64,000 nucleotides of DNA, from contig JABSSW010000054.1 of NCBI GenBank assembly GCA_018902385.1, positions 124,001 through 188,000 of the forward strand, in the 5' to 3' direction. The DNA is from Physcia stellaris. Taxonomy: Eukaryota > Ascomycota > Lecanoromycetes > Caliciales > Physciaceae. Below are positions 19,665 through 53,974 of the stretch, one piece after another. The notes below the pieces were generated by a model. That model had not been told where the DNA came from and did not search any database. It was given only the letters and a program-made list of their open reading frames with translations. A program made the translations under genes and the position numbers. How positions within the stretch are numbered: the first letter of the stretch is position 1; each line of letters opens with the position of its first letter.

Positions 19665-19937
19665 TATCTCAGGGTCTGATGTGGTGCAATTTGGTCTCTC
19701 ATGCGTCGCCACTAATATTTTCATGTAAAATCTACCCACCAAGAAATAGCTTTTTGGGGATATTCTGGCGGCTGGATAGAACAGTACGATAGTACGATGT
19801 TAGTGGAGTACTATGCCTCGGCCTGGTACTGAGTAATGCAATCTTTTAGGATACACCAACAGACCTGCGGTTAACCGACTTGGGACGGAATCTGAAGATG
19901 ATGCCTTTTTCAAGTCATATTCATATGCTTCGTGTTG
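19665..19937 (+). mobile_element. decayed MITE copy (copy C), interrupted
   Basis: The left end (TA then TCTCAGGGTCTGATGTGGTG) matches the left terminus of the two good MITE copies with a few changes. After about 30 bp the match stops, and it resumes at about 19845 with TTTTAGGATACACCAACAGA and GACTTGGGACGGAA, running to about 19937. Roughly 150 bp of unrelated sequence lies between, flanked by similar words (TGCAATTT and TGCAATCTTT), so a nested insertion is possible. The right terminal repeat is not recognisable. Confidence 0.6.
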
Positions 19938-43138: not shown

Positions 43139-45063
43139 CGGTGTATTCCCACAAAGTCGCACCCTCCTGAGTGCAATGCATTCTCACAGCAAATATACAT
43201 CTAGAGAATGTCTAATGGTCCATTCGACGGGTTTGGCGACCGACGCTCAACGAAGTAGACTCAACAATATGGCAATGCAGAGCAAGAGAATACCATGCTT
43301 GGTTTGACTCAGTAAACGGCCTGTGATTATCATGATAAAACATTGAGGAGACTAGACACCATGAAGTCACTCGACAAAAGCCTTGTATTTCTTGATATAT
43401 CAATCTGCAATGTAGATCGTCGAAACTCGATGCTATCGAGAAACCAGTCTTGCGATATCAGCAAAGTGAGGGACGATATTCTTAAATGGTGGCACTATAA
43501 CGAAGGTACGATCCATACATTCAGCGGATGCCTGGAGAACGGTAACGCTGATGGTGAATCTAGGTGTACCCACGCTATCCCATGGTCTGGAATTCAGTGG
43601 TGCTAATTTTTCGTTGAAGACACCAACAGATTCACAATTACCCGACTTGGGACGGAAGCAGAAGATGATATTTCTTTCATGTCATCTTCATACAGTCTTC
43701 ATGTCGTCTTCATATGCTTTGTGCCTAACACCCGTAAGCGTACTATCATATTGGGTGTATCGATAGCGATGCATGGGAGGCAGGATAGCACCACATCAGA
43801 CCATGGGATACGGCTGTGCTTATTTCACCTTTTCGGTAATTTTAAGCTTGGAGATGTATTGGTCCTTAGTATCACTGAGCATTCGATTACTGTAAGCTGT
43901 CGACGACACACGGTGGCTGTCAGTCGATTTGCTGGGTTGGTGGGGGCATTGACAGAGGGACTCTCATTATTGAGTGCTAGCACTGTGAGTGTCTCGGCGC
44001 GTTTTCTACTCCATAATGTTTTTATGGTCATTCCTTGATGAGTCTGCTGGGGCCATAGTAGTAAGTAGCCACTCTCAATGGCGACTTGCCGTGCCTATAG
44101 AAACCAGCATTATACAATATCTTCTCAACCTCTGATATCTCCGACCCTACTGTCCAAGATATAAGATTGCAAACAGGTCCAAAGCTCTTGGCTAACGGTT
44201 GAAGTAGCATAAATTAGGGATATGACTTGAAAAGTTACAACCCAACACGTCATTTCAGGCCAACTTCGAGTAGCGAACGATAAAAACATGTTGTTGTCTG
44301 TGTGGGGTTCAACTAGCTGCACCGTCAGCTCTCAAGATACGATGATGCAATTCACCTTACAAGTTGGCAGACAAACAAGGTTGAGACCATTCAACCTGTT
44401 GTACTTGACCCTGTAACCATCGAGCGAGGTAGGGGTTGGGCTGGCATGAAGACTGTAATCAATATGACCTTTGACGAAGCCCGTCACGCGTTGAACCACT
44501 GGGTTACTTCGCCCCAGCAGTATAAACATCTAGCCGGATGTCCAACACTTGAAACTTCCGAATGCTTTAGCGTCAGGTACAATAACAACAACAGATTAGG
44601 TAAGTCTCGCATAAATGATCGCGGCGTTGATCAAGGCTGCGTTATGGGTTATGTCCCCTGGCTATCGACCAACCGATCACCGTCGTTCCGCTCGTTATGC
44701 AACTCTACCGTTAGCATGGAAAGATAGCAGTTGGTACAATGAGATGCGGAGGTTTTTGGAACCTTCTGATCTTTCCTCGGGTTACTATCACGTCGCCAGC
44801 CTTGCATTCAGGTATTCCTGGCCGAGTTGGTTGGAACCAACCGTTCGTTTAACGGAACTTCAAGCCACTCTGAAGAGCTTTCTGGAATCGTGTGCTAAGC
44901 ACACAGGACTATATATTCGTCTTGTTGCTGCTGTACTCATCTCATTCCTCACCTTCGTCCATCTGCACGATCACTCTCGTTTATTCCATCCAGAGGTAAC
45001 TCAGAGCACGTCTTCTGCTCAGACTTTCTTTTTCCAAAATCTGCAAATACTTGTAACTCCACA
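43139..45063. other. gene-poor region carrying a MITE
   Basis: About 1.9 kb with MITE copy A at 43576-43810. A 163-codon plus-strand frame (44615-45106) has a hydrophobic stretch (LYIRLVAAVLISFLTFV) but overlaps the next gene in another frame and has no recognisable family, so I do not call it. Confidence 0.4.
43576..43810 (+). mobile_element. MITE with TA-flanked terminal inverted repeats (copy A)
   Basis: TA then TCCCATGGTCTG at the left end (43576-43589) and CAGACCATGGGA then TA at the right end (43797-43810) are perfect inverted repeats. The body between the TA pair is 231 bp and has no meaningful reading frame. Inside, TTCATGTCATCTTCATA and TTCATGTCGTCTTCATA form a near-tandem pair. TA flanks suggest target duplication of the Tc1/mariner kind, moved by a transposase encoded elsewhere. 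It shares a collinear alignment with copy B at 53743-53974. Confidence 0.85.
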
Positions 45064-53742: not shown

Positions 53743-53974
53743 TATCTCATGGTTTGGTGTGATGCTACCTTGCCTCCCATGCATCGCCATCGATACACCC
53801 AATATGATAACACGCTTACCCGTGTTTGGCACAAAGCGTATGAAGATGACATGAAGACAGTATGACAATGACATGAAAACAACATCATCTTCTGATTCTA
53901 CCCCAAATCGGGTAATCGTGGATCTGTCGGTGTATCCTAAAAATTAGCACCACTTATTACCAGACCATGGGATA
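53743..53974 (-). mobile_element. MITE copy B, same family as 43576-43810
   Basis: Read on the minus strand, it starts TA then TCCCATGGTCTGG (53974 downward) and ends at a slightly changed right repeat (AAACCATGAGA then TA, 53743-53744). The body between the TA pair is 228 bp and aligns end to end with copy A. Shared blocks include GTGGTGCTAATTTTT, CATATTGGGTGTATCGAT and GCGATGCATGGGAGGCA. Most differences are transitions, which fits decay with some C-to-T bias. No reading frame of meaning. Confidence 0.85.

What the first reader, a model, noticed from the sequence alone, without database searches (positions are those of the whole stretch)
43576..43810. A short TA-flanked inverted-repeat element family with three copies in one window
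Copies at 43576-43810 and 53743-53974 (opposite orientation) align end to end. They share TCCCATGGTCTG-type termini flanked by TA, and a third decayed copy lies at 19665-19937. Bodies are 231 and 228 bp with no coding capacity. Three copies in 64 kb suggest a family of hundreds or more per genome. TA flanks point to a Tc1/mariner-type transposase acting in trans (inference). I do not recognise the terminal sequence as a named fungal MITE.
Basis: partly seen in the sequence, partly recalled or inferred. Interest (0 to 1): 0.7.

Follow-up and report, generated by a model that had tools for sequence, protein, structure and literature searches.

The report
Several-hundred-copy fungal MITE family
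This is an ordinary but real family of short, gene-less jumping-DNA copies scattered through what looks like a fungal genome, apparently moved by an enzyme made elsewhere; it matters mainly as one more family that seems too short to be hit hard by the mutation process that has wrecked the long transposons of this genome.

Summary
Confirmed as a MITE-like family. The stretches at 43576-43810 (235 bp with a TA at each end) and 53743-53974 (232 bp, opposite strand) are two members. The "third copy" at 19665-19937 is two family fragments in opposite orientations. Genome-wide, the consensus gives 439 first-look candidates, 40 scored, 40 matching; the 14-bp end occurs 513 times against 9 for a control. 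In 47 extracted copies the flanks beyond TA are unrelated. The ends form a 25-bp inverted repeat with 5 extra bases on one side; the left 14-mer is the least-diverged window. No coding capacity. Copies sit in GC-normal DNA and are largely spared the C-to-T decay of long transposons. TA-targeting, Tc1/mariner-type mobilisation in trans is the best mechanism. No transposon with these ends was found around 33 DDE_1/DDE_3 matches, and the single-TA empty site was not resolved. No recent burst in the sample. New member of a known kind (compare mimp, Epichloe MITEs). In passing: the RIP-like decay of long repeats here hits CpC/CpT and largely spares CpA and CpG, which deserves its own study.

The parts
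43576..43810 (+). MITE copy 1 (235 bp including one TA at each end); 88.5% identical to the family consensus
43578..43589 (+). left terminal inverted repeat core TCCCATGGTCTG, preceded by TA
43797..43808 (-). right terminal inverted repeat core (CAGACCATGGGA on +), followed by TA
53743..53974 (-). MITE copy 2 (232 bp including one TA at each end); 94.0% identical to the family consensus
53743..53756 (+). end of copy 2 with 2 mismatches to the terminal 14-mer (TATCTCATGGTTTG)
53961..53974 (-). perfect terminal 14-mer of copy 2 (CAGACCATGGGATA on +)
19665..19711 (-). MITE fragment: consensus 232-186, 81% identity; carries one end with 2 mismatches
19820..19925 (+). MITE fragment: consensus 9-114, 82% identity; no intact end; opposite orientation to 19665-19711

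Best explanation
A non-autonomous DNA transposon (MITE) family. Shown: about 232-bp copies with a 25-bp terminal inverted repeat (5 extra bases on the left side), flanked by TA, no coding capacity, hundreds of dispersed copies in unrelated flanks, and ends more conserved than the interior. Inferred: copies were cut and pasted at TA targets by a Tc1/mariner-type DDE transposase supplied in trans by an element whose ends resemble TATCCCATGGTCTGGT...GTGGTGCTA. Several source lineages drifted in the interior while the ends stayed fixed. The family persisted because it is too short to be recognised well by the repeat-directed C-to-T mutation that has degraded the long transposons. The sample shows no very recent burst.
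For: Copy number: 439 first-look candidates with the consensus, 40 scored, 40 matching at 89-97%; 513 terminal 14-mers against 9 control. The first 30 listed exact 14-mers belong to 26 distinct elements; 24 of 26 carry at least part of the family interior and 20 of 26 have a partner end within 600 bp. TA on the left in 44, on the right in 45 and on both sides in 42 of 47 copies; flanks outside it unrelated. The base outside TA avoids A on the left and T on the right: 9 of 94 against a 27.6% background, P = 1.6e-5, a target context rather than a longer duplication. TIR alignment: 25 identical bases and one 5-bp gap. In 30 copies chosen by whole-length similarity (the 2 window copies and 28 of the 39 other rows), variants shared by at least two copies make up 1.4% and 1.7% of letters in the two terminal 14-mers against 6.3% in the interior; the left 14-mer is the least diverged of 219 windows. 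Flank GC is 0.425-0.534 in 47 of 47, while transposase loci are mostly AT-rich with stop codons. The longest ATG frame in the consensus is 48 codons.
Against: No matching autonomous element: none of the loci of 10 DDE_1 and 23 DDE_3 matches (about 1.5 kb either side) has these ends as its own, even when C-to-T decay is tolerated; Transposase_1 gave 0 matches but its controls were silent too. TA as a duplicated target is inferred from flanks. At the one site with relatives lacking the insert, the single-TA join aligned over 55 query bases to 57 target bases, and against held family copies the two-TA join scored slightly higher (35) than the one-TA and zero-TA joins (33 each); this leans, weakly, against a TA duplication. 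No pair among 47 copies is closer than 94.8%, so activity now is doubtful. The 47 copies were picked by their ends (up to 3 mismatches), which favours conserved ends; in the 30-copy subset no fetched copy was lost to that filter, but a whole-length match also favours intact ends.
Confidence: 0.87

Rival explanations
1. Segmental or tandem duplications that spread one non-coding sequence.
For: One local pair in L067 (copies at 38-241 and 501-734) has outside flanks that look alike by eye, though not at E <= 0.01.
Against: Among 94 flanks of 47 copies only one non-self pair reaches E <= 0.01, over 23 bp; 15 of 16 joined flanks match only their own site genome-wide.
Confidence: 0.02
2. A dispersed structured RNA or hairpin gene family rather than a transposon.
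For: The consensus folds into a long hairpin, -88.7 kcal/mol, z = -6.3, 0 of 200 shuffles as good.
Against: On 38 of the 47 copies the consensus structure keeps the terminal repeat plus some weak helices; the covariation term is -0.54 and 4 of 35 predicted pairs have a both-sides change in any copy. No Rfam match at E <= 1 for 43500-43900 and none at gathering score in the window and 12 loci.
Confidence: 0.04
3. A MITE moved by a different superfamily, with TA inside the terminal repeat and no duplication, or a 3-bp duplication of the PIF/Harbinger type.
For: No Tc1/mariner element with these ends was found; the only site with relatives lacking the insert has an unexplained 2-base difference from the single-TA join, and the two-TA join aligned marginally better to held copies.
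Against: The base outside TA is A (left) in only 3 of 47 and T (right) in only 6 of 47, so ATA or TAT duplications are excluded; no longer match between the two flanks was seen (by eye). The zero-duplication version is not excluded.
Confidence: 0.12

Closest known systems
mimp (miniature impala) elements of Fusarium oxysporum
   Same: 200-220 bp, no coding capacity, about 27-bp terminal repeats, TA target, copies near genes, no intact impala transposase in the reference strain Fol4287 (passages of PMC3599309).
   Different: Terminal sequence differs: CAGTGGG, the reverse complement of the end of the published mimp IR TT[TA]TTGCNNCCCACTG, is absent from the consensus on both strands. No impala-type partner with matching ends found here.
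MITEs of Epichloe festucae
   Same: Short elements in gene-rich DNA, only weakly affected by RIP presumably because of size, while long elements are RIP-mutated; mobilising element unknown (passages of PMC6218096).
   Different: Sequences not compared here; that study reports recent MITE movement, while my sample of 47 shows no pair above 94.8%.
MITEs of Zymoseptoria tritici
   Same: Small non-autonomous elements near genes, less affected by RIP, separate bursts (passages of PMC9970103).
   Different: Sequences not compared; that study covers 19 genomes, here one genome only.
Stowaway MITEs of plants (recalled)
   Same: TA target, short, foldback-prone, mobilised by mariner-like transposases (recalled, no call).
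   Different: Recalled Stowaway ends (CTCCCTCC) are not these ends; not tested by any search.

Membership tests
MITE (class, non-autonomous TIR DNA transposon) | short (under about 600 bp), fairly uniform size, no coding capacity | tested here: met
   195-265 bp in the 47 copies; longest ATG frame of the consensus 48 codons
MITE (class, non-autonomous TIR DNA transposon) | terminal inverted repeats | tested here: met
   25 identical bases and one 5-bp gap
MITE (class, non-autonomous TIR DNA transposon) | high copy number, dispersed, unrelated flanks | tested here: met
MITE (class, non-autonomous TIR DNA transposon) | target-site duplication proven by an empty site | tested here: inconclusive
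   TA on both sides of 42 of 47 copies; one site has 5 relatives without the insert, but 55 vs 57 bp aligned and letters not available; cannot separate 0, 1 and 2 TA
MITE (class, non-autonomous TIR DNA transposon) | autonomous partner with matching ends in the genome | tested here: inconclusive
   none around 33 DDE_1/DDE_3 matches; other superfamilies and longer spans not searched
Tc1/mariner superfamily | TA target site | tested here: inconclusive
   flanks consistent; empty site unresolved
Tc1/mariner superfamily | mobilised by a DDE/D transposase of this superfamily | not testable with these tools
   needs an autonomous copy or a transposition assay
mimp | mimp terminal repeat TT[TA]TTGCNNCCCACTG | tested here: not met
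   CAGTGGG (reverse complement of its last 7 bases) absent from the consensus on both strands; single copies not scanned
PIF/Harbinger (Tourist-like) | 3-bp duplication including the outer base | tested here: not met
   outer base A in 3 of 47 (left) and T in 6 of 47 (right); its transposase family was not searched

The most novel reading that the evidence does not exclude
The family is an escapee of a repeat-directed C-to-T mutation process with an unusual target: long repeats of this genome lose cytosine almost completely at CpC and strongly at CpT while CpA and CpG are largely kept. This would be a RIP-like defence of different dinucleotide specificity, and the 232-bp elements, below its length threshold, still carry normal CpC.
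Probability: 0.5. Interest if true: 0.6.

Novelty: new member of a known kind. Interest (0 to 1): 0.3.

Why it matters
As a MITE family it adds one more case of short non-autonomous elements spread in the GC-normal part of a fungal genome whose long transposons are mutated to death. It supplies a consensus and end sequence with which a partner transposase can be sought, and many insertion sites useful as strain markers. The wider point is the contrast with the long repeats: if their CpC/CpT-directed decay is a RIP variant, comparing it with the largely spared 232-bp copies gives a natural test of its length threshold.

Tried and rejected
Long elements bounded by the ends: exact ends 2.5-3.7 kb apart on C2, C5, C7, C17, C18 and C4 looked like possible autonomous elements. 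Reading them showed separate MITEs either side of other sequence. Eight frames from L039-L042 between or beside them were scanned against Pfam: rhodopsin-like, SLATT and MFS families, three frames with no family, no transposase. The long frames of L043 (778 aa) and L044 (523 aa) look by eye like a peptidase and a hexosaminidase (recalled, not scanned).

Single-ended copies (6 of 30 loci: L012, L013, L014, L020, L028, L034) were read as possible ends of long elements. Four continue with the MITE interior. L014 and L028 share only the first 16-19 bp; neighbouring frames match enoyl-CoA hydratase and an FAD-binding domain.

Transposase search: ends of the DDE_1/DDE_3 elements were sought. Several have clear ends of their own that differ: L079/L085, L080/L081/L084, L090/L093 and L109. 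Transposase_1: 0 matches, controls silent, so uninformative.

Insertions inside reading frames: of 47 joins the 12 with the longest frames were printed, and none looked like an interrupted gene to me; the L063 frame holds a flotillin-like stretch beside the site, recalled. Hairpin as a conserved RNA: not supported. Public collections of viral and of bacterial/archaeal DNA: the 21-base end pattern has 0 matches in each. The end sequence in print: 3 papers hold TCCCATGGTCTG, on unrelated subjects (listing only). Species: one 5.8S match among 39 scored of 2644 candidates; 179 bp beside it were too AT-rich for me to name the fungus.

Full report
The window lies in one contig (C54) of a 44-Mb, 147-contig genome without a name. 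Its genes, its RIP-like decay and its repeat types fit a filamentous fungus (inference); the species was not identified.

Observation. The two window copies are real and align end to end in opposite orientation: 84.7% over 235 columns, E 7.6e-66. Copy 1 has TATCCCATGGTCTG at 43576 and its reverse at 43797-43810; copy 2 has TATCTCATGGTTTG at 53743 and a perfect end at 53961-53974. The third copy is not one element. It is a minus-oriented piece of the right part (19665-19711) and a plus-oriented piece of the left half (19820-19925).

Family size. With the window copy as query there are 327 first-look candidates; 40 were scored and 40 match (itself included), 34 of them over the full 235 bases. 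With the consensus there are 439 candidates and 40 of 40 scored match at 89-97%. The terminal 14-mer occurs 254 + 259 times at up to one mismatch, against 4 + 5 for the reversed pattern. A few hundred copies is therefore a fair statement; the exact number is not known. To see whether the 14-mer marks anything else, I looked at the 30 loci of exact matches listed first. They hold 26 distinct elements; 24 carry at least part of the family interior and 20 have a partner end within 600 bp. A pattern with C or T after TATCCCATGGTCTGGT, which the two MITE ends normally lack, has 7 sites; two of these lie in loci I had fetched (L014, a solo end, and L073, a MITE) and five were not looked at.

Anatomy. 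I extracted 48 elements, one of them twice, leaving 47. Lengths run from 195 to 265 bp and the consensus is 232 bp. The two ends share 25 bases, interrupted on the left by 5 extra bases. Length differences come in part from a region of repeated TCTTCAT-type units, of which L050_1163 has extra ones. There are subfamilies: one of 210 bp that lacks about 22 bp in that region (L045-L048), and one whose left end reads TATGTCATGG (L039_3488, L040_3921, L043_501). The longest ATG frame in the consensus is 48 codons.

Insertion. TA stands on the left in 44, on the right in 45 and on both sides in 42 of the 47 copies. Beyond it the flanks are unrelated: among 94 flanks of up to 60 bp one non-self pair reaches E <= 0.01 (23 bp, E 0.008); two neighbouring copies in L067 have flanks that look alike by eye. 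The base just outside is rarely A on the left (3 of 47) or T on the right (6 of 47): 9 of 94 against 27.6% expected, P = 1.6e-5. That excludes a 3-bp ATA or TAT duplication and suggests a target preference around TA. I joined 16 of the 47 pairs of flanks with one TA and searched the genome. It returned 32 own halves plus 5 other places, all for one junction, that of L048 (C18:488624-488833), and all spanning the junction at 82-84%. The place on C12 lies close to a listed family end (C12:419314), so this copy probably sits inside a diverged related MITE (inference). The five places are 57 bp long against 55 in the join. Against held family copies the two-TA join scored 35, the one-TA and zero-TA joins 33 each. 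The empty site is therefore unresolved.

Evidence for selection on the ends. In 30 copies chosen by whole-length similarity (2 window copies and 28 of the 39 other rows; 11 rows were not fetched for this), singletons run at 1.0% and 1.7% of letters in the two terminal 14-mers and 2.1% in the interior. Variants shared by two or more copies run at 1.4% and 1.7% in the ends and 6.3% in the interior. The left 14-mer is the least diverged of 219 windows; 9 windows are lower than the right one. Shared interior variants mean several source lineages; their scarcity in the ends is what trans recognition by a transposase predicts. Some ascertainment bias remains. Median divergence from the consensus is 7.8%, range 3.4-27.9%, over 47 copies; the closest pair is 94.8% identical. 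This is not a fresh burst, at least in this sample.

Partner. DDE_1 gave 10 matches and DDE_3 gave 23 in this genome; their 33 loci (two overlap on one element) were scanned with about 1.5 kb on either side. The only hits to the 14-mer at up to 2 mismatches are the two ends of a complete MITE of the family about 1 kb from a DDE_1 fragment in L086. Allowing any number of C-to-T or G-to-A changes and one other mismatch to a 15-mer adds none; ten shuffled patterns average 7.7 chance hits. Several elements have clear terminal repeats of their own with other sequences. So the partner is absent, lost, decayed beyond recognition, or outside the families and spans I searched. Since I inspected only a part of the 513 end matches, a single intact partner could have been missed.

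Hairpin. The consensus folds unusually well (z = -6.3), but across 38 of the 47 copies the covariation term is -0.54 and 4 of 35 pairs show any double change. I read the fold as a by-product of inverted repeats.

Setting. All 47 copies have flanks of GC 0.425-0.534. Transposase loci are different: of 196 tiles of 500 bp from 32 loci, 124 have under 36% GC and 51 have at least 44%. In the AT-rich tiles, observed/expected ratios are CpC 0.06, CpT 0.30, CpG 3.15, CpA 1.24, TpA 0.41; in GC-normal tiles they are 0.93, 1.03, 0.96, 1.08, 0.73. Between aligned copies of AT-rich elements, C/T differences against kept C are 37 to 10 at CpC, 412 to 92 at CpT, 220 to 1574 at CpA and 58 to 1740 at CpG (8 pairs of loci, three of them among the same three copies). 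Stops inside the transposase matches are 91 TGA, 9 TAA and 2 TAG (my tally; two rows overlap one element), as expected if TGG becomes TGA through CpC on the other strand. MITE copies have CpC at 1.15 but CpT at 0.69, and their C-to-T changes from the consensus are 10.0% at CpC, 7.6% at CpT, 6.7% at CpG and 4.6% at CpA: the same order as in the long repeats but weak, so they are largely, perhaps not wholly, spared.

Is that decay known? RIP acts mainly at CpA in most fungi, with a CpT signature beside CpA in Magnaporthe, Botrytis and Sclerotinia (passages of PMC4352252). CpT is also reported as strong in Neurospora Tad1 and some Stagonospora repeats, where CpC was depleted together with CpA and CpG (passages of PMC2621366), in Neurospora rDNA (passages of PMC5555474), and as the dominant form in RIP-capable control fungi by an alignment method (passages of PMC7882544). 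What looks different here is near-loss of CpC with CpA and CpG kept. I saw no report of that in the listings or in those passages; that is not a proof of absence from print.

Known relatives. Short non-coding elements in gene-rich DNA that evade RIP by size are described in Epichloe (passages of PMC6218096) and Zymoseptoria (passages of PMC9970103). Mimp of Fusarium is a well-studied TA-targeting fungal example (passages of PMC3599309); its end motif is absent from the consensus here. This family is a new member of that kind, with ends for which I found no name.

Verdict. Interest as a MITE family is modest.

Noticed in passing
L079-L111 (transposase loci); L115: RIP-like C-to-T decay of long repeats targets CpC and CpT (ratios 0.06 and 0.30 in AT-rich tiles) and largely spares CpA (1.24) and CpG (3.15), unlike the usual CpA preference; internal stops are 91 TGA, 9 TAA, 2 TAG.
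   Followed up: partly
L013 near 1293 (minus strand), L020 near 1654 (plus strand): Two of the six single-ended MITE copies break off within about 10-30 bases of a tRNA B-box / T-arm-like sequence (GGWTCGANTCC); ARAGORN finds no complete tRNA gene there.
   Followed up: partly
G000 C6:791557-792528, C3:340323-341498, C5:498855-499792: Three places match the C5 DNA methyltransferase family (four rows); the C6 match has two in-frame TGA. They are candidates for the RIP/methylation machinery.
   Followed up: no
L115 (G000 C41:45720-45898): The 179 bp next to the one 5.8S rRNA match found (39 of 2644 candidates scored) are AT-rich with no CpC and high CpG, as if this rDNA copy had been mutated like the long repeats.
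   Followed up: partly
L079 (C12:388045-388545), L109 (C22:254757-255110): DDE_1 and DDE_3 transposase matches without internal stops, in elements with their own clear terminal repeats that differ from the MITE ends; the DDE_3 match is below the family's curated cut-off.
   Followed up: partly
L039-L044, L050, L067, L073: Several MITE copies lie within about 0.3-3.2 kb of another copy. L039-L044 and L050 were chosen for such pairs, so clustering was not tested.
   Followed up: no
L040:2847-3659: A 270-aa frame between two MITE copies matches the fungal SLATT two-transmembrane family, E 1.8e-36.
   Followed up: no
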